Assembly: GCF_030818575.1 (NCBI RefSeq)
Contig: NZ_JAUTAL010000001.1
Location: 372,001-436,000 of the forward strand
DNA from: Chryseobacterium camelliae
Lineage (GTDB): Bacteria > Bacteroidota > Bacteroidia > Flavobacteriales > Weeksellaceae
Reading direction: 5' to 3'
Length of the DNA stretch: 64,000 nucleotides
The stretch's first letter is position 1; the number at the start of each line of letters is the position of its first letter. The notes under the pieces were generated by a model. That model was given only the letters and a program-made list of their open reading frames with translations, ran no database searches and was not told the DNA's origin. Made by a program: the position numbers and the translations under genes. This document shows positions 12,161-32,684 of the stretch, one piece after another.

Positions 12161-14368
12161 ATGAATTTTGTACAGTGTCATGAGGAGCCTATACATATCC
12201 CGGGTTGTATACAAAGTTTTGGATATCTGATTGGCATTGATGCAGAATCACGTTCTATCACTTTTATCAGCGGGAATATTGCGGACATTTTTGTCATCGA
12301 GAGCATCGAAGCGCTTTTCGGTAGAAAAGTTACAGACTTTCCTCAAAGCTTCCACAGTATCATAAAATCAGATATTTATAATTCCCTGGACAACTTTACC
12401 AGACGTGAAAACGAAACCTACTTTGATAAAATCTTTATCAATGGGATACAGTATCATTTTTCTGTTTTCCGCAGCGATAATAATATATTTCTTGAATTTG
12501 AAGAAGTAATTTTCAATCCCAACAAGCGCATTTCCAATAAATATGACAGTTTTTATATCATGGATAATGCACAGGAAATCTGGGAACAGCTCCTGAATAC
12601 GCTTGCTCCGATCATCAATTATGACCGGATGATGATCTACAAATTCATGATGGACGGTTCCGGAAAGGTAATCGCAGAGAAAAAGAAGGACCACGTGGAG
12701 AGCTACCTCGGGCTTCATTATCCGGAATCTGATATTCCGCGCCAGGCCCGTGAATTATACATGAAAAAGCGTAAGAGAATTTTCAGCAATGTCTATGCAG
12801 AAACCGTTCCGGTGCTGAGCAGGGATATGGAAAGCATCGATCTTACATTTACCACATCGAGGGCTATGTCCCCGATTCATGGGCAGTACATCAAAAATTC
12901 CGGGGCTTCTTCAAGTTTCAGTGTGTCTATTGTTATTGATGATCACCTCTGGGGATTGGTTACCTGCCAGAACACCGAGCCGAAGCACATTGACCTGGAA
13001 GACCGGGTGCAGGCAGGAATTTTTACAGCACTGGCCTCCAATGCCTATTCTTCTTTCAAATCTAAGAATGAGCTCCAGTACAGGCTCTCACTGAATGAGA
13101 AAACATCGCAGTTAAAAGAGCAGCTCCTGCAGGACAATAATATATTTGATGTTCTTGCCGACAATAAATCTGAACTTGCCTGTCTTCCGGAAGCGGACGG
13201 GCTCGCGATCATCTCGGATGAGCATATGGTGACTGAAGGCAGTATTCCCGACAGGGAAACCGTCGGAAGGATCGCAGACTGGGCACTGGCAAATATTGAT
13301 GAAAGCATTTATGTCAACAGAAGCTTCCTCAAGGATCATGGCAAAGACCTGGCTCTTGATGAGAAGGCGGCCGGAGTAATCATCTATTGCATAGAAAAAA
13401 GCAAAAAGGAACTTCTGATCTGGTTCAGGAGGGAGTTTGACGAGCACATCAGCTGGGGTGGAAAACCGGAGAAAAAGATTGAACTTTTTGTGCAGAACGG
13501 TGAAGAAAAATACATCGTTTCCCCAAGAACGTCGTTTCATGCATTTACGGAAAGCATCAAAGGAAATTCAAAACGGTGGAACGGCAAAAATGTCAGCGCT
13601 GTAAACGCCGTGAGAGACGTAATCCTTGAGATTTCCCACAAAAATTACAATACGATAAAATCGCTCAACGACGAGCTGAAAAAAGTGAATGAAGAGCTGG
13701 ACAGCTTTTCCTATACCATTTCCCATGACCTGGGAACCCCACTTACCGTTATGAAGCTGAACGCTCAGATGCTGCTGAATACCCTTACGGACGGTTCGGA
13801 AAAAAGCAGGGCAAAAATCAAAGCCATCATCAATGAGATCGACGGAATGGCTGATATGATGAACGACGTCCTTCAACTCAGCAGGGCCAAGCATACTGAT
13901 ATCGTGCTGGAAAGTATCCCCACCGCCCAGACGATAGAAAAAATTTCGGAAAACGCAAAAATAACCTTTGAGAGCCCGAAAAGTAAAATCATCATCAAGG
14001 CCTGTCCTGAAGTGATGGCAGATAAGACCTTGCTTCACCAGGTTTTCCTGAACATCATCAACAACGCGGTGAAATATTCCTCCACCAAAGAACAGCCTGT
14101 TGTGGAGATCGATGGAGTGGAAGACGGCGAATTCGTGGTCTACAGGATCAGCGATAACGGCATCGGTATTCCCGAAGAGGAAAAACACAGGATGTTTAAG
14201 ATTTTTAACCGGATGGTCAACGCCAGGAAATTCAAAGGAAATGGTGTGGGGCTTTCTATCGTGCACCGCATCATGAAGAGGATTGGCGGCAGTGTGGAAT
14301 ACGAAAGCAATGACGAAGGAACTACATTCATTTTAAAGTTCAAAAACCCTAAATTAGAGGAATTTTAA
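12161..14368 (+). CDS. bphP: Bacteriophytochrome histidine kinase
   Basis: 735 aa light sensor kinase. Order: PAS-like domain (about 1-110) with C6 in CHEEPIHIPGCIQ, the N-terminal cysteine position that attaches biliverdin in bacterial phytochromes; GAF domain (about 130-300) with the chromophore-contact motif YPESDIPRQAR (D191); PHY domain (about 310-490); HisKA with H522 in SYTISHDLGTPL; and a C-terminal ATPase with NIINNAVKY, DNGIGIPEE and GNGVGLSIV. No receiver domain is fused and no response regulator gene is adjacent. The heme oxygenase gene follows after 24 bases, so sensor and chromophore enzyme are made together. Red/far-red sensing is established for the family; the output is unknown. 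Confidence 0.95.
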   Translation: MNFVQCHEEPIHIPGCIQSFGYLIGIDAESRSITFISGNIADIFVIESIEALFGRKVTDFPQSFHSIIKSDIYNSLDNFTRRENETYFDKIFINGIQYHFSVFRSDNNIFLEFEEVIFNPNKRISNKYDSFYIMDNAQEIWEQLLNTLAPIINYDRMMIYKFMMDGSGKVIAEKKKDHVESYLGLHYPESDIPRQARELYMKKRKRIFSNVYAETVPVLSRDMESIDLTFTTSRAMSPIHGQYIKNSGASSSFSVSIVIDDHLWGLVTCQNTEPKHIDLEDRVQAGIFTALASNAYSSFKSKNELQYRLSLNEKTSQLKEQLLQDNNIFDVLADNKSELACLPEADGLAIISDEHMVTEGSIPDRETVGRIADWALANIDESIYVNRSFLKDHGKDLALDEKAAGVIIYCIEKSKKELLIWFRREFDEHISWGGKPEKKIELFVQNGEEKYIVSPRTSFHAFTESIKGNSKRWNGKNVSAVNAVRDVILEISHKNYNTIKSLNDELKKVNEELDSFSYTISHDLGTPLTVMKLNAQMLLNTLTDGSEKSRAKIKAIINEIDGMADMMNDVLQLSRAKHTDIVLESIPTAQTIEKISENAKITFESPKSKIIIKACPEVMADKTLLHQVFLNIINNAVKYSSTKEQPVVEIDGVEDGEFVVYRISDNGIGIPEEEKHRMFKIFNRMVNARKFKGNGVGLSIVHRIMKRIGGSVEYESNDEGTTFILKFKNPKLEEF

Positions 14369-20413: not shown

Positions 20414-21325
20414 ATGAAAATAAAATTAATACCGCTAACTTTGCTTTTATCATCATTTACCTTTGCTCAATCATGGGGGCTAACAGGAAATTCAGGAACT
20501 AATCCTCCGAAAAATTTTATTGGAACAAATGATGATAAAGAGCTTGTATTTAAAACCAATAATCAGGAAAGGCTTAAAGTTTTTGCCGGTCCTTATGTCA
20601 ATGGAATTGTTATAGGAAATTCTGCGGCTAATGGTACTGTCAATGGTGCAAAACTGGAGATAGCAACTGTTCTATGTAATGGTTGTGCTTCACGTTGGGC
20701 TGTCCCTTCTGATGTAGTGATCAGAACTTTAGGGAGCAGAAATATGGAATTCCACATGCCCAACGATAATGCAATTGATCCTAATTCAGATACTTCTACT
20801 CCAAATTCGTCGGGGGTGACCAAAATTAAATTCACTGATGCTGTTCATAAAAGCAGCCTGGCTGTTTTCAACACCGGAAAAGTAACTGTTGGTACGGACC
20901 AATATGATAATGACCCTGATTATATCTTTTATGTACGTAAAGGGATCAAGGCAGAACAGGTTAAAGTTGAGAATCCTGCTACTAATGGCTGGGCAGATTA
21001 TGTATTTAAAAAAGATTATAAACTAAGGACTTTAGATGAAGTTGAAAGACACATTGCTGAAAAAGGTCACTTACCCAATATCCCATCTGCTACTGAAGTA
21101 GAGAAAAACGGGATTAACCTGGGTGAAATGGATGCTAAGCTTTTAGAAAAAATCGAAGAACTAACCCTTTATTCCATTGAACAGAATAAACAAATAAAAC
21201 AACTTCAGAGTGATAATGCAATCCTGAAAATACTGACTGAAGAACTTAAAGAATTAAAAAAACAGTCTGATGAGCTTGAAGAGTTGAAAAAACAAGTTCA
21301 ACAGCTCATTTCAACCCCAAAATAA
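20414..21325 (+). CDS. Secreted fibre-like protein with C-terminal coiled coil
   Basis: 303 aa. Signal peptide (MKIKLIPLTLLLSSFTFAQ). The central part is beta-rich and resembles tail-fibre-like surface proteins. Around residue 195 comes WADYVFKKDYKLRTLDEVE, then HLPNIPSATEV and NLGEMDAKLLEKIEELTLY, a C-terminal region common in Bacteroidota fibre-like proteins, followed by a heptad-rich coiled coil to the end. Four bases separate it from the next gene, so it is first in the operon leading to the RHS toxin. Adhesive or display role is inference. Confidence 0.75.
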   Translation: MKIKLIPLTLLLSSFTFAQSWGLTGNSGTNPPKNFIGTNDDKELVFKTNNQERLKVFAGPYVNGIVIGNSAANGTVNGAKLEIATVLCNGCASRWAVPSDVVIRTLGSRNMEFHMPNDNAIDPNSDTSTPNSSGVTKIKFTDAVHKSSLAVFNTGKVTVGTDQYDNDPDYIFYVRKGIKAEQVKVENPATNGWADYVFKKDYKLRTLDEVERHIAEKGHLPNIPSATEVEKNGINLGEMDAKLLEKIEELTLYSIEQNKQIKQLQSDNAILKILTEELKELKKQSDELEELKKQVQQLISTPK

Positions 21326-21329
21326 TACT

Positions 21330-21812
21330 ATGAAAAGAAAAATACTATCTATTTCCTCTTTATTGATCGGGTTCTTTGGATTTTCCCAGACTGAAGTCTA
21401 TTTTAAATATGATGAAGCAGGAAATCAGCGCTATCGTGGAACCAATGCTGCTGGTAAAAAGACTTCGGATATCCAACTTGCTGAACAGTCGAAGATGCAG
21501 GAAACCACTATAGCTGCTGTAAAACAGGATCCGGTCATTGATGAGAAATCATTCTGGAAGCAGATCAGGCTGTATCCGGTTCCGGTAAATGACGTTTTAA
21601 CCATAGACTGGACGGAAGAAGTAGACGGACTGATAGAATCAGTTTCCCTCTACCAGCACAGCACCGTACACTGGAAATTCCAGCAGCAGAACCTTCCGGA
21701 TCTGAACAGGAAGCTGAAAATTAATATGACCGGTTACGACTGGGGTATTTATGTCCTTCATTTTACCTTGAAAGATGGAAGGGTCTTCAGCAGGAACATC
21801 ACTAAGCGATAA
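21330..21812 (+). CDS. Small secreted protein with YD-like motif and T9SS-type C-terminal domain
   Basis: 160 aa. A signal peptide (ends GFFGFSQ) is followed directly by VYFKYDEAGNQRYRG, which reads like one RHS/YD repeat, then a polar linker. From about residue 85 comes IRLYPVPVNDVLTIDW, with GIYVLHFTLKDGRV near the end. This layout resembles T9SS type A sorting domains, with a VPVND variant of the usual NP signature. It sits between the fibre protein and the RHS giant, 34 bases before the latter. A partner in secretion or display of the RHS protein is plausible but unproven. Confidence 0.72.
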   Translation: MKRKILSISSLLIGFFGFSQTEVYFKYDEAGNQRYRGTNAAGKKTSDIQLAEQSKMQETTIAAVKQDPVIDEKSFWKQIRLYPVPVNDVLTIDWTEEVDGLIESVSLYQHSTVHWKFQQQNLPDLNRKLKINMTGYDWGIYVLHFTLKDGRVFSRNITKR

Positions 21813-21846: not shown

Positions 21847-24800
21847 ATGAAAATGAGAATATTTTCATCATTTATACTGTCGTTGTGTTCAGTCATGGCC
21901 TTTTCCCAGACCATCCTGTACCAGGCAGAAAGTAGTACCCGGACGGTTCAGGATCCTCAAACGGTAGTGTTGGCTCAGGGATTCACCGCTTCATCGAGTG
22001 TATCGAATCCTTTCGTAGCTAAAATAGGCCCTGCGACAGAGAATCCTGGCGGTGGACCTGCAGATTCTAATGCAGGGGCTAATAATCCCTCAGGAACTAT
22101 AACATCCTCACAAGATCAAAAATTTCATGATACGAAGGGGAATATAGATGTAAACGGAGCAGGGCAACTTCAATTTACTTTACCCATTGCGTTACCGCCG
22201 GGAATAAAAAATGTAGCTCCTCAGATTAATCTTACTTATACCAGCGGATCAGCAAATGGAATTGCTGGATATGGTTGGAGTCTAGGTGGTACTACTTCTA
22301 TATCAAGGATTGGAAAAAATATTGAAAGAAATAATGCAATACGTGGAGTACAATTAGATTATTCTGACGATTACAGTTTCAATGGACAGAGATTGATTTT
22401 AAAGTCCGGTGAATATGGAAAAGATGGTGCAGAATATGTAACGGAGAAATACTCTAATATAAAAATTAAATCAATTGGATCATTACAGGGGACTGCACAA
22501 AATATGAATGGACCCCAATATTGGGAGGTAACATTTGAAGATGGTTCACAAGCATGGTATGGGGCAACAGATTCTAATGTAGAATTTAGTCCTGGTCGTA
22601 CGCCTTTGGAATATAACATTATTAAATGGCGTGATGTTCAAGGAAATTACATAACCTATATTTATAATCAGGCCAATAATGTTTCTACTATATCAAATAT
22701 ACAATGGGGAGGGAATGATAAAATCAATAAACCTCATTTTAATAGTATTCAATTTAATTATACCAGTAGAAAACTTAATGAGATCGCTTATGTCAATGAA
22801 AAAGAATTTATTCAGAATCAATTATTAAAGAGTATTGAAGTAAAAGCAAACCAAAATAAGTTCAAAAAGTACATAATAGATTATGAAGAAACTAGCAGTA
22901 GCTACCAATTTGTAAAAAATATTACAGAACAAAATGCTGCTGATGAATCTGCAACACCTGTTAACATAGAATATTATACCAACGCAGGAAGTAATGAAGA
23001 AACGAACTATCAAAATGCTCCAAGTACAACAACGACAAAAAAGTATGGGGATTTTAACATGGATGGAACTACTGATTATCTTGAATTTGTTTCAGATGGT
23101 AATCTAAGGTTTAAAAATTCTGTCTATTCAAGCAATAACTCAACGGTTAATTTATCCTATGATGCTACGAAATTTAAATTGGAAAATTTCAAAAATGCTA
23201 TTCCCTTAGTATTCAAAAAAGATAACTACATTACCAATAAAATGGGACTTGTTGTGCCTGTACCTAAAAATACAAGTGTAACATATAAGAAGGATTATGA
23301 ATTTCAAATATACTCTATTGATATTCAAAATCAGAAACTGAATTTTGAGTATTCTAAAACAATGGATTACGACTCCTTTACGCCATTAGTACTGGATGAT
23401 GAATTAGATGGTTGCCAGACGCCTTCTGCTCCTACTTTGGTTGAAGCACAGAGTCATGATTTTAATGGTGACGGAATTCCTGAGCTTATTATTAAATATA
23501 GGGTAACAAGAATTTGCGGAAGTATTACAACAGATCCTGGACCTATTTCCAGCAAATTTTCTTCTTTATCGGAATCATCAGTAGGTGATGAAGTTGAAAT
23601 ACCTTTATCAATTGATAGGAAAACAAATACAGAGGGAACTCAAGATGATACTCCTACTGATGAAATAGGGAATGGACAGACAATAAAAGCATTTTTCTCT
23701 TATGTTTTTTTTGATTTGGATCAAAGTTTAACCATTCCTCAAAGTATATATAAATTCGAGACAAGTTCTACAAATGGTTCTGTTGGGGGTACTTCGCAAA
23801 TTAGATTGGCAGATCTTAATGGAGATGGTATTCAAGATATAATAGCTCAGACTTATTCTCAGTTTTCAAACGTTTTTAACATCAAACGAGATGATTTCTA
23901 TAATTATTCAAAGGTAACGGTAGGAAACTTTTCTGGGACTAATTTTGTTGGCTTACCTCATACAGGGATGATGTTCGGTGATTTCAATGGAGATGCGAAA
24001 GCAGATATTATTGTTCCACAGTCAAGTGGCTCAAATGTTTATAAACTCTATATTTCTAATGGTAATAATTTCATTATCTCTTCTGTTCAATTACATCCTT
24101 ACCAGCCAAATCCAGTAGTGCTGGCACAAGATTCTCATAATGGATTTCCTGAAAGTAAGTGTGTTTATCAGACTATTGATTATTATCAATATGATGTAAA
24201 TGATTTGGATGGAGATGGAAAATCTGAAATTATTGTAAGTGAAGTTATGGTTACTGATCATGAGTGGGCTTCTCATAATAATCAAGAGTCTACACAATAT
24301 AGAGTAGCCGTTTATTCATTAAATAAGATTGATAATGTAAATGTCTCACTTTTCAATCAAACAGATTCAAGTGGGAAATATACTTTTTATCAGACTAGAG
24401 TATGGACAAAATCTTTTTCTGGACAAGCAATTTATTTTTCTCAGCTGTCATTAAATAGAGATAATCAACAAATAATTTTAATTGGAAAATTAAGCAATTG
24501 TACCGGTGACAATTGTAACTACATTGTCAATTATGGACATCCGTACCTACCTACGAAATCAAGAATAAAAACCATTACCCAAGGAGGAATTACAACCACA
24601 GCTTTGTATCAGGAACTAAATACCTATCAGGATTCAAACCTTTATAAACCTGTTAAAAGAGAGCAGTTTCCCTATTATGAGATGGACATAATTCCCCAAT
24701 CGTCTATTGTTACCAGATTGATTCAGACGGGGACCTCATCATTATACCAGGATTTCAGATATAGAGGGATGATTTCGCATTTTACAGGCAAAGGAATGAT

Positions 24801-27800
24801 AGGATTCCGACAAAGTGCACGTTCATCTTGGTATACCAACGGATATGAAAATACAAAAATTTGGGCAGGAACAGAAATTGATCCAATCAATGAGGGACTA
24901 CCTATAAAAGAATGGGCAATAAGAACAACGGAAGAAAGCAAAATTTTCCCGGCAGATATTTCTGAAAATAATACACAGTTACTCAGCTTAAAAATTACAC
25001 AGTATCAAACAGATAAGTTGGTAAACGGGCAGATTTTATCTACTGTAGCTGATAATGACAAGAAAAATATGGTGATCTCAATCATACCAAAGGTTATCAG
25101 GTCTAAAGACTTTTTAACTGGTGTTGTTACAGAGGATACCATTATTTATGGAGACTACTATCTTCCTGCACAAAAAAATTCAAATATTAATAATGGCTAT
25201 GCTATAGAAAATACTTTAATAGATTATTATAATGATATAGCAGGAGTGGGGTCTAATTATTATATTGGTCGCCCTAAAAGTAAAACCAATATATCTCAGG
25301 CTTATGGAGATACAAAATCTGCAAAAGAAGAATATGTCTACGAGAGCAATCAGCTAAAATCTATTAAAACTTGGAATAGAGACAACTCAGCATATGTACT
25401 GGAAACATATAATTATGATGATTTTGGAAATATTAATCAGAAAGTTATTACTAATAGCACCGATGCACAGACAGAAACCGTCAACTCTGAGTATGATCCA
25501 AATGGTCGTTTTGTAGTTAAAAAAACTGATAATTTAGGATTAGAAACTTATATAATTTATAATGACTTTGGACAGATTTTATCTGAAACAGATCCGGATG
25601 GAAACTCAAAAATAAATACTTACGATAATTGGGGAAAAATCCTTAAGACAAAAGATAATTTATTAGGAGTTACCGCTTACCAATACGAAAAAGACAATAA
25701 TTGGAATATTATCGTCACTCAATATGATTCGGACGGTGACGTTATAAAAAATTATACAAACAGACAAGGGCAAAACTATTTGACATCAACAAAAGCATTT
25801 GGGCAGGGACAATTTGTACATAAACAGTTCAGCTATGATTTAATTGGAAGAAAAATTGCGGAAAGAGAACCTTTCTATGATGGAGGACCTCTGCAATGGA
25901 ATTTAACAACTTATGACGATACAACTTATCCGGCAAAGGTTACATCAACATCATTTACCGGAAAGAAAATTGAGACTAGTGTATCTGGTCTTATAACAAC
26001 AATGAAGGAAACAAATCCTTCGGATTACGGAAGGATTAACACAAAAACTGTAGATGCTTTAGGAAATGTGGTTTCTACTACAGATAAAGGAGGCGCTATT
26101 AATTTTTCTTATAACGCCGCTGGAGAGCAAATAGAAGCGAAGTATGCAGAGAATGTTGTAATAACAAAATATGATACTTGGGGTAGAAAGTCTGAAGTTA
26201 ATGATCCTTCCAATGGAATCTACAAATATGAATATAATGGTTTTGGACAAGTTAAAAAAGTTATTAGTCCGAAAGGAACTAAAGAACTTATTTATAATAA
26301 TTTAGGACAGCTTATCACCCAAAAAGAAATATCGACTACAGATGGTGGCTTGTCGACAAATAAATTAATTACTTTAGCTTACGACCCCAAGGGAAGATTG
26401 ATTTCAAAATCCGGAACTTCTAATGGCAAAGCTTATGGTTCAAACATTAGCTATGATCAGCAAGGAAGAATATTATCTTCCTCAGAAAGTAGTAACGGAA
26501 AGTATTTTATACAAAAAGGTATAACATACGATGATAAAGGAAGAATTATATCTTATGAGAAGCAGCTTTATTCTTCCGGAACTATGACCAAGGTACATAT
26601 TGAAAACGTTTACAGCACATGGAGTGGAGATTTGTATCAGGTGAAAGACAAAGCATCCGGTAAAATACTTTGGGAACTTAAAGAGGTTAATTCTAAAGGC
26701 CAGATTTTAAGTTCAAAGCTTGGAGCTGTTAATATTACTAATACCTATGATACTACTCATGGATTTCTTACAAGTGCAAATCAAGTAAATCAGAATAATA
26801 CAGTTATTCTTCAGATGAATTATGCTTTTGATGCTATTAAAAATGAACTGAAAAATAGAACAAGAGGGGGAGATTTTAATATTACAGAAATATTTAATTA
26901 TGATGATAATAATAGGCTAGTCAACTGGACAAATCCTGTTACTGGACAAATGTCTCACAATGTATATGACGTCAAAGGAAGAATCATGGAGAATGATCAG
27001 GTAGGAACAATGAAGTATGAGAATTCTTCTAAGATCTACCAACCTACAGGGATGACGTTAAATGCAAAAGGTGAGCAGAATTATACCAATGATCTAATTC
27101 AGACCATTACATACAATGAAAATAATGATCCTGTTTTTATTGATGGATTGAAGGGCGATGTTGCTTTCCAATACGGACTATCGGGGATGAGACAACGAGT
27201 GACATATGGCGGAAATTTTGCTGCAGACGGAGATGGAAAATACACAAAGTTCTATAGTGAAGATGGCAGCTTTGAAATACAGATAGATAACTCTACAGGA
27301 GCAGAAAAACATGTTATCTATATAGGGGGTACACCTTATGAAAGTAATATCGTTTTTGTAAAAAATTATGGGGAAACAACAGGTTCTTATAAATTCCTGC
27401 ATAAAGATTATTTAGGGAGTATACTTGCCATTACTGACGAAGCTGGAAATAATTTGGAGCAAAGACATTTTGATGCCTGGGGGAATATGACCCATTACAA
27501 GAAAGGGCTTAAGTCTATTATTACAGATCGTGATCAGATTAATGTGATTATATCAAATGGTAATCTATTATTGGATAGAGGATATACGAGTCATGAATAC
27601 TTCCCAGAAATAGGCATTATTCATATGAATGGAAGATTATATGATCCTTTATTAAGAAGATTCTTGAATGCCGATGAATTTATTCAGGATCCAACAAATA
27701 CACAGAATTATAATAAGTATGGCTATGTATTGAATAATCCGTTGATGTTTAATGATCCAAGTGGAGAATTTATTCAGGTAGCTGCGGCAGCAATTCTCTT

Positions 27801-28764
27801 TTGGCAGGCAGTTGCAATAGGTACGTATATTGCTTTCGCTACCTATCTTGTTACAACAGCTTATTTAACTAAAGAACAAATCAGCTTAAAAGGCGGACTC
27901 AAGTCAATCTTTTTTGGAGCTGTCTCCTCAGCCGTGACCTTCGGAATAGGAAGCGCCTTCTCCAGTGCTGCAGGAGCTACCCAATTTGCTAAAAGTTTAG
28001 GAGATGCTGCGTTTTTAGTAAAAGCAGCAGCACATGGTATTGCTCAAGGAACGTTATCCTTGATGCAGAATGGGGATTTTAAACAATCTTTCTTTTCAGG
28101 ATTTTTCGGAAGTTTAGGAGCATCCGCTTTTGGAGCTGTTGCAGGTACTGCAGCAAATAGTGCCATAGGTACAATTGCATTTGGTGCCATCTCTGGAGGA
28201 ATTGGTTCAGAATTGTCAGGAGGGAATTTCTGGCAGGGCGCAGTCATTGGAGGTATTGTTGCTGGACTTAATCATGTCATGCACAGATCAAATGTTTTTT
28301 ATATAGAAAATGATGACAATAATGATAATAATGATGGTGGGAAAAAAAGCGACAGTGCAAATAATCGAAACACAAGCCATCATAAACCCGCACCAAAAAC
28401 TTTACCTGGATTTCCTAATGCTAAAAGAGCAAACAATAAAGGGAGTGGTAGAACAAGATGGAAAAATCCGGACGGAAATATCTTAGAATGGGATAAACAG
28501 CATGGTGATGTAGAAGTTTATAACAAAAAAGGGAAACATCTAGGATCAGCAAGGCCTGAAACAGGTGAAATGTACAAGCCCCCTGTAAAGGGAAGAACTA
28601 TTGATCCTATAATAAAAACAGGAATTGGAGTAACAATTTTGGTAGGTGGATTAAAACTAATAGATTTGGCAACGAAAAGACTTACACCGTTTTTAATGAC
28701 ACCAATAATGCAGATGCAGATGGATAATGTACAAAGTCCCAAGAACCAAAGAATAATTTTATGA
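21847..28764 (+). CDS. SpvB/VCBS/RHS polymorphic toxin with colicin E3-type ribonuclease C-terminus
   Basis: 2305 aa. Signal peptide 1-20. An SpvB/TcaC-like domain (about 95-330) includes LTYTSGSANGIAGYGWSLGG. FG-GAP/VCBS calcium-type motifs such as DFNGDGIPE and DLNGDGIQD lie near residues 400, 540, 656, 711 and 786. YD/RHS repeats fill about 1180-1900. The RHS core near 1931-1977 has GRLYDPLLRRFLNADEF and ends NDPSGEF. A Gly/Ala-rich hydrophobic zone (1980-2140) precedes the variable tip. Residues about 2186-2251 match the colicin E3 cytotoxic RNase: RTRWKNPDG, EWDKQHGDVEVY, KGKHLGS, PPVKGR. D2216, H2219 and E2223 have the spacing of E3 catalytic D510, H513 and E517; R2250 corresponds to R545. 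E3 nucleases cut 16S rRNA at the decoding centre. Unusually, a membrane-like helix (about 2255-2275) and a 30-residue tail follow. Confidence 0.92.
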   Translation: MKMRIFSSFILSLCSVMAFSQTILYQAESSTRTVQDPQTVVLAQGFTASSSVSNPFVAKIGPATENPGGGPADSNAGANNPSGTITSSQDQKFHDTKGNIDVNGAGQLQFTLPIALPPGIKNVAPQINLTYTSGSANGIAGYGWSLGGTTSISRIGKNIERNNAIRGVQLDYSDDYSFNGQRLILKSGEYGKDGAEYVTEKYSNIKIKSIGSLQGTAQNMNGPQYWEVTFEDGSQAWYGATDSNVEFSPGRTPLEYNIIKWRDVQGNYITYIYNQANNVSTISNIQWGGNDKINKPHFNSIQFNYTSRKLNEIAYVNEKEFIQNQLLKSIEVKANQNKFKKYIIDYEETSSSYQFVKNITEQNAADESATPVNIEYYTNAGSNEETNYQNAPSTTTTKKYGDFNMDGTTDYLEFVSDGNLRFKNSVYSSNNSTVNLSYDATKFKLENFKNAIPLVFKKDNYITNKMGLVVPVPKNTSVTYKKDYEFQIYSIDIQNQKLNFEYSKTMDYDSFTPLVLDDELDGCQTPSAPTLVEAQSHDFNGDGIPELIIKYRVTRICGSITTDPGPISSKFSSLSESSVGDEVEIPLSIDRKTNTEGTQDDTPTDEIGNGQTIKAFFSYVFFDLDQSLTIPQSIYKFETSSTNGSVGGTSQIRLADLNGDGIQDIIAQTYSQFSNVFNIKRDDFYNYSKVTVGNFSGTNFVGLPHTGMMFGDFNGDAKADIIVPQSSGSNVYKLYISNGNNFIISSVQLHPYQPNPVVLAQDSHNGFPESKCVYQTIDYYQYDVNDLDGDGKSEIIVSEVMVTDHEWASHNNQESTQYRVAVYSLNKIDNVNVSLFNQTDSSGKYTFYQTRVWTKSFSGQAIYFSQLSLNRDNQQIILIGKLSNCTGDNCNYIVNYGHPYLPTKSRIKTITQGGITTTALYQELNTYQDSNLYKPVKREQFPYYEMDIIPQSSIVTRLIQTGTSSLYQDFRYRGMISHFTGKGMIGFRQSARSSWYTNGYENTKIWAGTEIDPINEGLPIKEWAIRTTEESKIFPADISENNTQLLSLKITQYQTDKLVNGQILSTVADNDKKNMVISIIPKVIRSKDFLTGVVTEDTIIYGDYYLPAQKNSNINNGYAIENTLIDYYNDIAGVGSNYYIGRPKSKTNISQAYGDTKSAKEEYVYESNQLKSIKTWNRDNSAYVLETYNYDDFGNINQKVITNSTDAQTETVNSEYDPNGRFVVKKTDNLGLETYIIYNDFGQILSETDPDGNSKINTYDNWGKILKTKDNLLGVTAYQYEKDNNWNIIVTQYDSDGDVIKNYTNRQGQNYLTSTKAFGQGQFVHKQFSYDLIGRKIAEREPFYDGGPLQWNLTTYDDTTYPAKVTSTSFTGKKIETSVSGLITTMKETNPSDYGRINTKTVDALGNVVSTTDKGGAINFSYNAAGEQIEAKYAENVVITKYDTWGRKSEVNDPSNGIYKYEYNGFGQVKKVISPKGTKELIYNNLGQLITQKEISTTDGGLSTNKLITLAYDPKGRLISKSGTSNGKAYGSNISYDQQGRILSSSESSNGKYFIQKGITYDDKGRIISYEKQLYSSGTMTKVHIENVYSTWSGDLYQVKDKASGKILWELKEVNSKGQILSSKLGAVNITNTYDTTHGFLTSANQVNQNNTVILQMNYAFDAIKNELKNRTRGGDFNITEIFNYDDNNRLVNWTNPVTGQMSHNVYDVKGRIMENDQVGTMKYENSSKIYQPTGMTLNAKGEQNYTNDLIQTITYNENNDPVFIDGLKGDVAFQYGLSGMRQRVTYGGNFAADGDGKYTKFYSEDGSFEIQIDNSTGAEKHVIYIGGTPYESNIVFVKNYGETTGSYKFLHKDYLGSILAITDEAGNNLEQRHFDAWGNMTHYKKGLKSIITDRDQINVIISNGNLLLDRGYTSHEYFPEIGIIHMNGRLYDPLLRRFLNADEFIQDPTNTQNYNKYGYVLNNPLMFNDPSGEFIQVAAAAILFWQAVAIGTYIAFATYLVTTAYLTKEQISLKGGLKSIFFGAVSSAVTFGIGSAFSSAAGATQFAKSLGDAAFLVKAAAHGIAQGTLSLMQNGDFKQSFFSGFFGSLGASAFGAVAGTAANSAIGTIAFGAISGGIGSELSGGNFWQGAVIGGIVAGLNHVMHRSNVFYIENDDNNDNNDGGKKSDSANNRNTSHHKPAPKTLPGFPNAKRANNKGSGRTRWKNPDGNILEWDKQHGDVEVYNKKGKHLGSARPETGEMYKPPVKGRTIDPIIKTGIGVTILVGGLKLIDLATKRLTPFLMTPIMQMQMDNVQSPKNQRIIL

Positions 28765-29315
28765 TAAAAAGAGTAATAGAGGAATTTAGTATCGAGAATG
28801 AAATCATTAATCAAGAATATGATTTAGATATAACACCAAAAGAAATTATACGGGTGTTGGATGATTTTTCTTTAGCAGATGATGATAATGAAGATGAAAT
28901 ATATGGACAATATACATTATCTGAGGAGCAGATTCAAAAACTAAAGCCCTTTTTAAAAGATCCATTGTATGAAGATTTAGAAAAATATACATACGAATTA
29001 AGCTGCTATGAGGAACAGGAAGTTTCTGTCTCAGCTATACAAATGGAAAAGATAAGATCTGTGAAAGAATTTAGTAAATTATCAAATGAGATCAATAAAA
29101 GTTATGGTTTGGAAATTGATTCAAAGGAAATTTTGAAGATTTTAGATGACTTGTCAGTAGATGAAGATGATGAGAATCTTGATGAAGTATATAAGCTTAC
29201 AGATTCGCAAATTGAGAAATTAAAACCTTTTTTAAAAGAAAATCTTAATCAGAATATTGAAAAATATGATTATTATCTTTATCACTGGTACAATGAAGCA
29301 AGTACGGAAAACTAA
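28761..29315 (+). CDS. Candidate immunity protein, acidic with tandem internal duplication
   Basis: 184 aa, no signal peptide, strongly acidic (runs such as ADDDNEDE and DEDDENLDE). Two homologous halves are visible: residues 6-80 and 102-174 share a helix ending LDDFS or LDDLS, an acidic loop, then QIQKLKPFLK or QIEKLKPFLK, and an EKYxY end. The start overlaps the toxin stop by 4 bp (ATGA), so translation is probably coupled. Position, acidity and coupling all fit an immunity protein against the basic E3-like nuclease. It does not resemble the classical 85-aa E3 immunity protein as I recall it. Function is inferred from context. A terminator closes the operon. Confidence 0.75.
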   Translation: MIKRVIEEFSIENEIINQEYDLDITPKEIIRVLDDFSLADDDNEDEIYGQYTLSEEQIQKLKPFLKDPLYEDLEKYTYELSCYEEQEVSVSAIQMEKIRSVKEFSKLSNEINKSYGLEIDSKEILKILDDLSVDEDDENLDEVYKLTDSQIEKLKPFLKENLNQNIEKYDYYLYHWYNEASTEN

Positions 29316-29710: not shown

Positions 29711-30016
29711 TCACATCATTCTGTTGGAAAGATCAGCCAATACCCAGATTGTCCCTCCGGCAGTGATCAGAAGCATGACCAATGAAAAAAGAACGAGCCA
29801 GAGATCTTCTTTATTTTTTTGTCTGAAGCTGAGGTGTAAGAAATATTTGAGCTGAACGATAATCTGGACAATGGCCAAAAGGGTGATGATCCAGAGAGCC
29901 TTGGTCCTGTCCAAACCGTACATTACCGTTGAGAAGGCGGCCAAAGTAATTCCTATACAAACAATTGTGGCTACAATATATCGGGTTAATTCTGTTTTAA
30001 ATTTTGTCGATTTCAT
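29711..30016 (-). CDS. cyoD: Cytochrome o ubiquinol oxidase subunit IV
   Basis: 101 aa from the ATG at 30016, which overlaps the cyoC stop as ATGA; an upstream in-frame extension is cyoC sequence read in another frame. Three hydrophobic helices and the pattern RTKALWIITLLAIVQIIVQL KYFLHL (split here at position 20) are characteristic of CyoD. This small subunit helps assemble the proton-pumping bo3 quinol oxidase in the inner membrane. Last gene of the cyoE-A-B-C-D cluster, with an IS-like remnant just beyond it. Confidence 0.88.
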   Translation of the reverse strand: MKSTKFKTELTRYIVATIVCIGITLAAFSTVMYGLDRTKALWIITLLAIVQIIVQLKYFLHLSFRQKNKEDLWLVLFSLVMLLITAGGTIWVLADLSNRMM

Positions 30017-30648
30017 AATGTACCAAATAAAAAGATGACCGAAAAAATACCGATCCAGACCAGATCCAGAAAATGCCAATAGACACCAAGGCAAAGCACC
30101 CGGCTTTTGGTAGCAAAGTCAAAGCCTCTGCTGTAGATTTGAAAGATCGTAACAAGCAACCAAACTAAACCGATTCCAATATGAAGACCGTGAAGGCCGA
30201 GCAGCGCGTACATCGATGACAGCCAGCCGCTTCTCGTAGGTACGCCGCCTGATTTGGCCATATCTGATAAATCGGTAATTTCAAAATATAGAAACAGAAA
30301 GCCAAGAATAAAGGTGATGATTAACCACAAGGCCATCATGTTTTTATTCTGTTTGTATTTCATGATCAGGCTCGATATCCCGAAAGTTAAGCTGCTTAAT
30401 AAAAGAAACAGAGTCTGATAAATGACACTTTTTAGATTGAACAAATCTTTCGGCCCGGGTCCGTCTGCCATGCCCATCATATTATGCGAAGAAGCATAGG
30501 TTGCGAACAGGATCCCAAAAATAATCAGATCACTCATTAAAAAAGTCCAGAAACCAAAAACAACTGTTTCTGTTTTCTTTTCCGGCTCGGGGCTGTCGTG
30601 CTCCAGATTTAGTCCCGGATGAATTGAATATTTTTTATCAAAAAACAT
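30013..30648 (-). CDS. cyoC: Cytochrome o ubiquinol oxidase subunit III
   Basis: 211 aa with five predicted membrane helices. FGFWTFLMSDLIIFGILFAT near residue 31 and LLGLHGLHIGIGLVW near residue 149 are standard for the subunit III family of heme-copper oxidases, and the length suits CyoC. It is part of the bo3 quinol oxidase complex. It overlaps cyoD by 4 bp and follows cyoB after 35 bases. Confidence 0.93.
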   Translation of the reverse strand: MFFDKKYSIHPGLNLEHDSPEPEKKTETVVFGFWTFLMSDLIIFGILFATYASSHNMMGMADGPGPKDLFNLKSVIYQTLFLLLSSLTFGISSLIMKYKQNKNMMALWLIITFILGFLFLYFEITDLSDMAKSGGVPTRSGWLSSMYALLGLHGLHIGIGLVWLLVTIFQIYSRGFDFATKSRVLCLGVYWHFLDLVWIGIFSVIFLFGTL

Positions 30649-30683
30649 AATACTTCTATTTTAAATTTTATTGGGTGAGGTTA

Positions 30684-32684
30684 TTATCTCTTTTGAGAAT
30701 AAATACTTTCCCAGGTTTCCTTTACTTCTTTCTTATCAAAAAAACTTGGTTTTATAATCATACAGGACCTCACAATAATGGAAACAATGATTGCTGAAAC
30801 GGCTAAGATCGCTAACCACCAGATATGCCAGATTAAACTAAATCCCATGATGAAAGAATAAGCGGCCATCTGAAAACCCATTGTTGATGGAGGAGCTAAT
30901 TCTATATCTTCATAATTTTCTATTTTATAGAGATCCTGTTCCTTTTGCTTTTTATTGTACCAAAAATCTCTGGAGTCTACTTTCGGAAGAACTGCAAAAT
31001 TCCATTCCGGAGGGGGAGAAGGGATAGACCACTCCAGGGTTCTGCCATCCCAGGGATCTCCTTTTGGGTCGGTTTGGGTATCCCTTTCAATATAGCTTAT
31101 GTAATAATCATAGATCAGAAAACTCAGCGCGCCAAGCATCATAAATGCGCCTATTCCGGAAACGATCAGCCAGGGTTGAAAAGAGGCATCATGAATTTCA
31201 GGAGAACGTCTAGGCAATCCCTGAAGACCCAGCCAATAGAGAGGCATAAATGTAAAAATAAAGCCGAAAATCCAGAGATAAGCTGAAATTTTACCGTACT
31301 TTTCGTTCAGAGAATATCCGAACATCTTCGGAAACCAGTAATGGATACCCGCCAACAGGCCGAACAATACCCCCGGAATAATTACATTATGAAAATGGGC
31401 TACCAGAAAAACCGAATTGTGCACCTGGAAATCAATCGACGGATTGGCCAGTAAGATTCCTGAAAGTCCCCCGATAACAAAAAGGATAAAAAACCCGATC
31501 AGGTAGATCATCGGAGTCGTCATCCGGATCTTTCCTCCGTACAGCGTAGCCATCCAGTCATAGACTTTGATTCCTGTAGGAATAGCAATGACCATGGTGG
31601 CAATTCCGAAAATTACATTAACATACGCACTTTGTCCCATGGTAAAAAAGTGGTGGAGCCAGACTGTAAAAGATATGACTGCTATCGACATGGTCGCAAT
31701 AACTAAAGATTTGTAACCATATAATACTTTAGAGGAAAAAGTACTTGAAATTTCTGAAAAGACACCAAAGGCCGGTAACACCAGAATATAAACTTCCGGA
31801 TGGCCGAACATCCAAAAAATATTGGCATAGTTCATCATATTTCCGCCTAGATCATTGGTGAAAAAATGCCATCCCAGATAACGGTCCGCAGCAAGCATCA
31901 AAGTGGAAGTTGTGATAGCCGGCATTGCGTAGATTAGCATAATGGATGAGCATAAAGCTGTCCAGGTGAACAAAGGCATCCTCATCAGCGTCATACCCGG
32001 AGTTCTTAACTTGTATATCGTTACAGTAAAATTGATTCCCGACATTAATGAACCGACTCCGGAAATAAAAACGGACCAGATCCAGTAATCGGGACCAACG
32101 TCCGGACTGAAATCAATACCGGTATAAGGAGGGTAGGCGGTCCAGCCTCCGGTCTCAAACCGGCCGATAACCAAAGACATCATCATTAAAGAGGCTCCGG
32201 CGAGTGTAAATCCTAAACTCATCTGGTTGAGAACCGGAAATGCAACATCCCTCGCACCGATCTGTAAAGGAACGATGTAATTCATCAATCCGATAATCAG
32301 CGGCATTGCCACAAAAAATATCATAATGGTACCGTGCGTGCTGAAAATCTGAGAAAAATGATCAGGCTCTATGATTCCGCCGTGCAGCGAGGTCATCTGC
32401 TGTACCCTTAGGATGATTCCTTCCATCACCGCCCTTATCAGCATAACGATCGCTATCGAAAGATACATGATCCCGATTTTTTTATGGTCAGGGCTTTTGA
32501 TCCAATTGTTCCAGAAATTTTTCCATAATTTATACCGGATAAGGATAAATATAATGGACACAAATCCCATGATGATGGCAAAGGCTCCTCCGCAGGCGAT
32601 CCAGTTGTTGAGGCTGGGTTCCTTGATCAGCGCAGAGAAAGGAAAAGAATTCCAGGATAATTTTCCGAAAATAGGGTTCATCAT
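30684..32684 (-). CDS. cyoB: Cytochrome o ubiquinol oxidase subunit I
   Basis: 666 aa with about 15 membrane helices, matching the long CyoB type. Visible motifs include THGTIMIFF (low-spin heme helix), the binuclear-centre segment GHPEVYILVLPAFG with the His-Glu-Val-Tyr cross-link motif, and the histidine pair in WLHHFFTMG. Later HFHNVIIPG carries ligands of the second heme. It oxidises ubiquinol or menaquinol, reduces oxygen to water and pumps protons. The start overlaps the cyoA stop by 4 bp. Confidence 0.96.
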   Translation of the reverse strand: MMNPIFGKLSWNSFPFSALIKEPSLNNWIACGGAFAIIMGFVSIIFILIRYKLWKNFWNNWIKSPDHKKIGIMYLSIAIVMLIRAVMEGIILRVQQMTSLHGGIIEPDHFSQIFSTHGTIMIFFVAMPLIIGLMNYIVPLQIGARDVAFPVLNQMSLGFTLAGASLMMMSLVIGRFETGGWTAYPPYTGIDFSPDVGPDYWIWSVFISGVGSLMSGINFTVTIYKLRTPGMTLMRMPLFTWTALCSSIMLIYAMPAITTSTLMLAADRYLGWHFFTNDLGGNMMNYANIFWMFGHPEVYILVLPAFGVFSEISSTFSSKVLYGYKSLVIATMSIAVISFTVWLHHFFTMGQSAYVNVIFGIATMVIAIPTGIKVYDWMATLYGGKIRMTTPMIYLIGFFILFVIGGLSGILLANPSIDFQVHNSVFLVAHFHNVIIPGVLFGLLAGIHYWFPKMFGYSLNEKYGKISAYLWIFGFIFTFMPLYWLGLQGLPRRSPEIHDASFQPWLIVSGIGAFMMLGALSFLIYDYYISYIERDTQTDPKGDPWDGRTLEWSIPSPPPEWNFAVLPKVDSRDFWYNKKQKEQDLYKIENYEDIELAPPSTMGFQMAAYSFIMGFSLIWHIWWLAILAVSAIIVSIIVRSCMIIKPSFFDKKEVKETWESIYSQKR

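What the first reader, a model, noticed from the sequence alone, without database searches (positions are those of the whole stretch)
28405..28764. RHS toxin tip is a colicin E3-type rRNA nuclease followed by a membrane-like tail
Residues 2186-2251 match the E3 cytotoxic RNase fold. D2216, H2219 and E2223 have exactly the spacing of E3 catalytic residues, and R2250 sits near the expected arginine. In colicins and most polymorphic toxins the nuclease is the very end of the protein. Here about 55 more residues follow, including a 20-residue hydrophobic helix. The tail might anchor the nuclease, mask it until processing, or help it cross the target membrane. The protein also has a Sec signal peptide, so it is not an ordinary T6SS-delivered RHS protein.
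Basis: partly seen in the sequence, partly recalled or inferred. Interest (0 to 1): 0.8.

Follow-up and report, generated by a model that had tools for sequence, protein, structure and literature searches.

The report
Shuffled tail behind RNA-cutting toxins
A very large secreted bacterial protein ends in a domain with the predicted fold and the active-site residues of colicin E3, so it likely cuts the ribosomal RNA of rival bacteria, and behind that domain sits a conserved hydrophobic tail that relatives also carry behind a different toxin domain, so the tail is likely a separate, exchangeable part that would help the toxin cross a rival's membrane.

Summary

The 53-residue tail is neither an error nor unique. 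It is under purifying selection and is on all five E3 tips found in the genus. Of 127 E3 proteins examined, 80 end within 7 residues of the domain, 6 run into an immunity domain, and 41 carry a 39-85-residue tail. New: the same tail families follow a different toxin domain, Ntox37. Three tail clusters mix both toxins, and one Chryseobacterium RHS protein carries Ntox37 plus this tail. Of 30 same-shell loci fetched, 25 carry other tips and none of those has it. The tail thus looks like a portable third module tied to two predicted RNases, not to the shell.

Best guess for function, untested: an inner-membrane entry module, analogous to CDI entry domains but placed after the toxin.

The parts
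21847..28764 (+). RHS polymorphic toxin, 2305 aa: signal peptide-like N-terminus, SpvB, FG-GAP propeller, RHS repeats, hydrophobic pre-toxin region, E3 nuclease, tail
21847..21909 (+). signal peptide-like hydrophobic N-terminus (residues 1-21); no signal-peptide predictor was run
   Evidence: hydropathy 1.67 over residues 5-23; sequence
22159..22914 (+). SpvB domain (residues 105-356)
   Evidence: Pfam PF03534 E 8.1e-16
23812..24024 (+). FG-GAP propeller repeats (best stretches, residues 656-726)
   Evidence: PF13517 and PF01839
27574..27765 (+). RHS-associated core (residues 1910-1973)
   Evidence: TIGR03696 E 6.1e-13
27778..28326 (+). Gly/Ala-rich hydrophobic pre-toxin region (residues 1978-2160), kept by same-shell proteins with other tips
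28387..28602 (+). colicin E3/pyocin S6-type ribonuclease (residues 2181-2252); D2216, H2219, E2223, H2231, R2250
28603..28761 (+). portable C-terminal tail (residues 2253-2305), hydrophobic stretch 2254-2276 then a TP..MTPI segment
28761..29315 (+). immunity gene, 184 aa, two tandem DUF7683 domains; starts inside the toxin stop codon (ATGA)
   Evidence: PF24731 58 bits over cut-off 27, NF040643 pyocin S6 immunity 26.7 bits under cut-off 30; halves 49% identical
21330..21812 (+). small secreted protein, 160 aa, with a YDxAGNxR motif and a weak T9SS sorting domain; neighbour kept in relatives, role unknown
   Evidence: PF18962 23.2 bits under cut-off 27; counterpart at L008 2769-3197
20414..21325 (+). 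secreted coiled-coil-like protein, 303 aa, in the same run of genes
   Evidence: sequence; same order in L007

Best explanation
This is an RHS protein that ends in a colicin E3-type ribonuclease, predicted to be secreted and to cut 16S rRNA in rival bacteria, followed by a portable hydrophobic tail that would likely act as a membrane-entry module for the freed nuclease. Shown by sequence: the E3 domain with its catalytic residues, the overlapping DUF7683 immunity gene, the tail, its conservation, and its sharing with Ntox37 toxins. Inferred: the protein leaves by Sec, and the RHS shell holds and later releases the C-terminal piece. Inferred: in the target the hydrophobic tail inserts in, or finds a partner at, the inner membrane and helps the small RNase reach the cytosol, where it cuts near A1493. 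Inferred: the producer is protected by its cytosolic immunity protein (no signal peptide-like start in its sequence). Different tail families would use different entry routes, as CDI entry domains do, which would explain why tails and nucleases are shuffled.
For: E3 identity. Immunity; the pyocin S6 immunity gene also overlaps its toxin's stop codon (PMC4905994 passages). Tail as a module: of 127 E3 proteins, 80 end within 7 aa of the domain, 6 run into an immunity domain, 41 have tails of 39-85 aa; 38 of 43 E3 tails and 22 of 22 Ntox37 tails reach hydropathy 1.0, and 14 of each reach 1.6. Sharing: the tail profile, run on 171 Chryseobacterium genomes, hits seven below E 1e-9: five E3 tips, one E3-cassette remnant and one Ntox37 tip on the same shell. 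Of 26 Ntox37 proteins, 21 carry a tail of 23-55 aa. With a cut above all of 30,000 shuffled scores, 56 cross-family tail pairs remain and three clusters mix both toxins: 14+7, 13+5 (with this window) and 1+3. Nucleases compared likewise: 0 of 861 pairs above the maximum of 20,000 shuffles. Swap: P0013 (E3) and P0134 (Ntox37) share an identical 68-aa shell stretch, then different nucleases, then alike tails. Not the shell: of 25 same-shell other tips none reaches E 0.05 with the tail profile (best 0.061), while the three E3 controls score 2e-29 or better. Selection: dN below dS. Precedent for shuffled entry modules: PMC9424206 (passages).
Against: No data show membrane insertion or entry. This copy's hydropathy is borderline (1.57) and the AlphaFold tail is low-confidence; the same holds for the Ntox37 model's tail. 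25 of 25 other tips on the same shell lack the tail, so the shell can work without it, unless those tips carry their own entry means. E3 tips in other bacteria and in some Bacteroidota (Emticicia P0033, Algoriphagus P0055, loci L016 and L078) have none. CDI entry domains lie before the toxin, not after it. Twelve of 861 E3-Ntox37 nuclease pairs pass the 99.9% shuffle level, more than the one expected, so remote kinship of the nucleases is possible and would weaken the 'unrelated toxins' argument. The mixed clusters are single-linkage, and the searches began from tail-bearing queries, so the tailed fraction is biased upward.
Confidence: 0.42

Rival explanations
1. The tail is a tether in the producer: as the last stretch to leave through Sec it stops in the inner membrane or docks on the hydrophobic pre-toxin region, and holds the RNase inside the shell until release.
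For: The pre-toxin region has several hydrophobic stretches and the tail is the last one; the tail is C-terminal and hydrophobic in most copies examined.
Against: Same-shell tips without a tail are common (25 of 25 non-E3 tips), so holding does not need it; an orphan tip keeps it (G164 ORF of 155 aa).
Confidence: 0.2
2. The tail completes or masks the RNase or helps immunity binding, so it is part of the enzyme rather than a delivery piece.
For: In what was searched it is found with E3 and Ntox37 only, which PMC3482391 lists under one heading of predicted metal-independent RNases, both all-beta (passages).
Against: A tail-less E3 locus has the same DUF7683 immunity type (L016, 57.7 bits), as do six E3-DUF7683 fusions (for P0106); the catalytic residues are kept in tail-less rows; the Ntox37 locus has an unrelated downstream ORF; colicin E3 ends where the tail begins.
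Confidence: 0.15
3. The tail is a second, membrane-damaging toxin, so the tip is a two-in-one weapon.
For: Hydrophobic stretch with a basic and often an acidic residue inside, varied in sequence.
Against: The only adjacent gene that looks like immunity is the soluble DUF7683 protein.
Confidence: 0.08
4. The tail is only a 3' homology arm or scar of tip exchange, with no function in the protein.
For: Remnants without a toxin persist (L084, L086, L087); tip swaps happen here.
Against: Purifying selection at the protein level and a conserved pattern across genera.
Confidence: 0.1

Closest known systems
Colicin E3 / pyocin S6 rRNase domain (PF09000, Tox-ColE3)
   Same: Fold (predicted), catalytic residues, adjacent overlapping immunity gene of the S6 type
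   Different: 53 residues follow the domain; the carrier is an SpvB/RHS protein; the immunity protein is a tandem duplicate
TcdB/TcaC-type polymorphic toxins of PMC3482391 (signal peptide, SpvB, beta-propeller, RHS)
   Same: Same domain order
   Different: That paper's table row lists Tox-ColE3 for T2SS, T5SS and T7SS, not for this pathway (passages); this one adds a module behind the toxin
CdiA-CT cytoplasm-entry domains (PMC9424206)
   Same: A module shuffled among different toxin domains; proposed role in crossing the inner membrane
   Different: CDI entry domains are helical domains placed before the toxin; this is about 25-85 residues, hydrophobic, and behind it
Ntox37 (PF15535) RHS toxins of Bacteroidota
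   Same: Same shell type and same tail families
   Different: Different toxin domain; in the one locus read, a different downstream gene

Membership tests
Colicin E3/pyocin S6 cytotoxic RNase (PF09000) | Profile match above the curated cut-off | tested here: met
   70 bits, cut-off 22
Colicin E3/pyocin S6 cytotoxic RNase (PF09000) | D510, H513, E517 and R545 equivalents (residues from PMC4905994) | tested here: met
   D2216, H2219, E2223, R2250; same in 40 of 40 rows
Colicin E3/pyocin S6 cytotoxic RNase (PF09000) | E3 fold | tested here: met
   AlphaFold model, Foldseek and VIA matches to colicin E3
Colicin E3/pyocin S6 cytotoxic RNase (PF09000) | Nuclease is the extreme C-terminus (usual, not strict) | tested here: not met
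   53 residues follow; 80 of 127 examined proteins end within 7 aa. Treated as a variant
Colicin E3/pyocin S6 cytotoxic RNase (PF09000) | Cleavage of 16S rRNA at the A site | not testable with these tools
   Needs an in vitro or in vivo assay
Pyocin S6-type immunity (DUF7683, NF040643) | Profile match, adjacent to the toxin gene | tested here: met
   PF24731 58 bits, cut-off 27, ATGA overlap; NF040643 26.7 bits is under its cut-off 30
TcdB/TcaC-type polymorphic toxin | Signal peptide, SpvB, integrin-like propeller, RHS | tested here: met
   PF03534, PF01839/PF13517, PF05593, TIGR03696; signal peptide by hydropathy only
T6SS-delivered RHS effector | N-terminal PAAR domain | tested here: not met
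   No PAAR among Pfam hits at E up to 1; the genome has a sub-threshold TssB hit
CDI cytoplasm-entry domain | Module shared by different toxin domains | tested here: met
   E3 and Ntox37 share tail clusters
CDI cytoplasm-entry domain | Placed N-terminal to the toxin domain | tested here: not met
   The tail is C-terminal, so it is not filed as a CDI entry domain
CDI cytoplasm-entry domain | Needs a target inner-membrane protein | not testable with these tools
   Needs a genetic screen

The most novel reading that the evidence does not exclude
Bacteroidota RHS toxins have a third swappable part: a short hydrophobic C-terminal module behind the nuclease, in several families that recombine freely with different RNases and that set the route into the target cytosol, the mirror image of the CDI entry domain.
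Probability: 0.3. Interest if true: 0.82.

Novelty: new variant of a known kind. Interest (0 to 1): 0.62.

Why it matters
Polymorphic toxins are usually read as carrier plus C-terminal toxin plus immunity. A conserved, exchangeable module behind the toxin changes where one cuts when cloning or annotating toxin tips, and it makes an open question testable: how RHS toxins of the Sec/SpvB class get a nuclease across the target inner membrane. It may also help to spot RNase tips whose toxin domain is not recognised.

Tried and rejected
Tail belongs to the shell: rejected. One search found same-shell matches in 119 of 173 genus genomes; 30 loci were fetched. Three are E3, two are truncated shells (L063, L077), and 25 carry other tips, some of them near-duplicates of each other. 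The tail profile gives none of the 25 an E of 0.05 or less (best 0.061). Three of the 25 have a hydrophobic end of another sequence (L055, L064, L076). Ten of the 25 tips were run on Pfam and gave no family, so their activities are unknown. Other RHS proteins: 30 loci; 15 gave a readable full tip and none had a hydrophobic end (highest 0.28); two were truncated and 13 were not parsed (a first parser, read only one).

Tail types A and B are one family: only suggestive (hhalign probability 31%, E 5e-4, 25 columns). Type B profile in 198 phylum genomes: 0 matches at E 0.01. In five genomes of known loci it found three E3 tips that helped to build it, four weak hits at E 0.12 or above, and not the tail of L012. 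A third tail type in plasmids: no match. Viral contigs: no relatives of the tip.

E3 and Ntox37 are one family: not shown (hhalign probability 9.9%; no colicin E3 among the 50 rows shown of 70 Foldseek matches of the Ntox37 model, mean pLDDT 64.5, nor in the VIA list; inconclusive). Remote kinship is not excluded: searches align the same short stretch, 12 of 861 pairs pass the 99.9% level, and both models are small beta folds after a short helix.

Literature: the listings showed no paper on a hydrophobic module behind the nuclease; some searches were for other questions. I saw passages only of PMC3482391, PMC4905994, PMC7073777, PMC9424206 and PMC5536347; all others only as search listings.

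Full report
What is there. The ORF at 21847-28764 encodes 2305 residues: a hydrophobic N-terminus, SpvB, FG-GAP and RHS repeats, an RHS core, a Gly/Ala-rich hydrophobic region, a PF09000 Cytotoxic domain and a tail. Full-length relatives with a name are from Chryseobacterium, Empedobacter and Sphingobacterium. The build matches the TcdB/TcaC class of PMC3482391 (passages).

The immunity gene. It overlaps the toxin stop codon and encodes two DUF7683 domains. The halves are 49% identical. The first half is 54-61% identical to the single-domain proteins of four related Chryseobacterium loci, the second 44-49%. The duplication is also in the near-identical uncultured Chryseobacterium locus.

The tail is real. 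It recurs in P0003-P0008, and five Chryseobacterium loci give dN below dS. In the family, 6 of 320 genomes have PF09000, five of them in the genus, and all five genus tips carry the tail. One of the five is frame-broken (G117) and one is an orphan ORF (G164); both are described as they stand.

The tail is widespread but optional. Of 130 session proteins, 127 hold the E3 domain: 80 end 2-7 residues after it, 6 continue into DUF7683 in the same ORF, 41 have tails of 39-85 residues. These are the window protein, six hits and the 120 listed of 235 hits, from a mostly tail-bearing query, so the fraction is not a prevalence. Named tail-less ones include Treponema, Paraburkholderia, Frankia, Emticicia and Algoriphagus.

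The tail moves between toxins. A profile of the window-type tail, run on 171 Chryseobacterium genomes, gave 16 genomes at E up to 0.1; seven were below 1e-9. Five are the E3 tips, one is a tail-plus-immunity remnant (L084), and one (L085) is the same shell ending in a different domain followed by this tail. That domain is Ntox37, 31.3 bits over a cut-off of 27.8, and the only Ntox37 in 169 genus genomes. The other nine genomes had E 1.6e-4 to 0.08; of these I looked at five (L086-L090), which are short or stop-broken stretches or a hit inside another gene. PMC3482391 lists Ntox37 and Tox-ColE3 under one heading, predicted metal-independent RNases (passages). A search with this Ntox37 tip found 26 proteins: 21 have tails and five do not, one of which (P0135) may be cut by a contig end. 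Among 43 E3 and 22 Ntox37 tails, pairs above the best of 30,000 shuffles number 180, of which 56 are cross-family; clusters of 14+7, 13+5 and 1+3 mix the families, and the remaining 22 tails fall in unmixed clusters or stand alone (single linkage). Cross pairs above that cut in the first set (47 of 861) have a median tail identity of 51% against 34% for the nuclease with free end gaps; within families the nucleases are 62% and 68%. Of the 861 cross-family nuclease pairs none passes the null maximum, though 12 pass its 99.9% level. P0013 and P0134 share 68 identical shell residues and differ in the nuclease. P0066 (Treponema, E3) and P0153 (Ntox37) share another shell and are both tail-less.

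The tail is not part of the shell. None of 25 same-shell tips of other kinds carries it. The immunity type does not track the tail either: tailed E3 loci and the tail-less L016 have DUF7683, and the tailed Ntox37 locus has an unrelated 187-aa ORF downstream.

Mechanism. Shown: toxin domain, immunity, tail, sharing and selection. Inferred: Sec export, release from the RHS shell, 16S cleavage and the tail's role. I favour an entry role because the tail is hydrophobic, is shuffled like CDI entry domains (PMC9424206 passages), and in this search follows only two predicted RNases that must reach the cytosol. Against this, the copy here is only borderline hydrophobic, the tail model is poor, and many tips do without it. 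Tether, enzyme-part, second-toxin and scar readings are listed as rivals.

Verdict. The nuclease and immunity pair are ordinary members of a known kind. The new part is the portable module behind the toxin, for which the paper searches named in Tried and rejected showed no earlier description.

Noticed in passing
P0056, P0085, P0086, P0106, P0108, P0114: Six proteins of the E3 search carry the nuclease and a DUF7683 immunity domain in one ORF, toxin first. They may be natural toxin-immunity fusions or ORF-calling effects.
   Followed up: partly
21330-21812; L008 2769-3197: A small secreted protein with a YDxAGNxR motif and a weak T9SS sorting domain sits directly upstream of the RHS gene in both Chryseobacterium and Sphingobacterium.
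   Followed up: partly
28761-29315: The immunity gene is a tandem duplicate in this lineage (window and L007) and single-domain in the four other Chryseobacterium loci compared and in L008 and L010.
   Followed up: yes
L084, L086, L087, L009: Decayed or displaced E3-cassette remnants and a frame-broken E3 tip in related Chryseobacterium genomes.
   Followed up: partly
G000 whole genome: 17 RHS-core matches in the window's own genome and one sub-threshold TssB match at C1:497162-497395.
   Followed up: no
12161-14368, 30013-32684: Ordinary neighbours: a phytochrome-type histidine kinase and cytochrome oxidase subunits.
   Followed up: no
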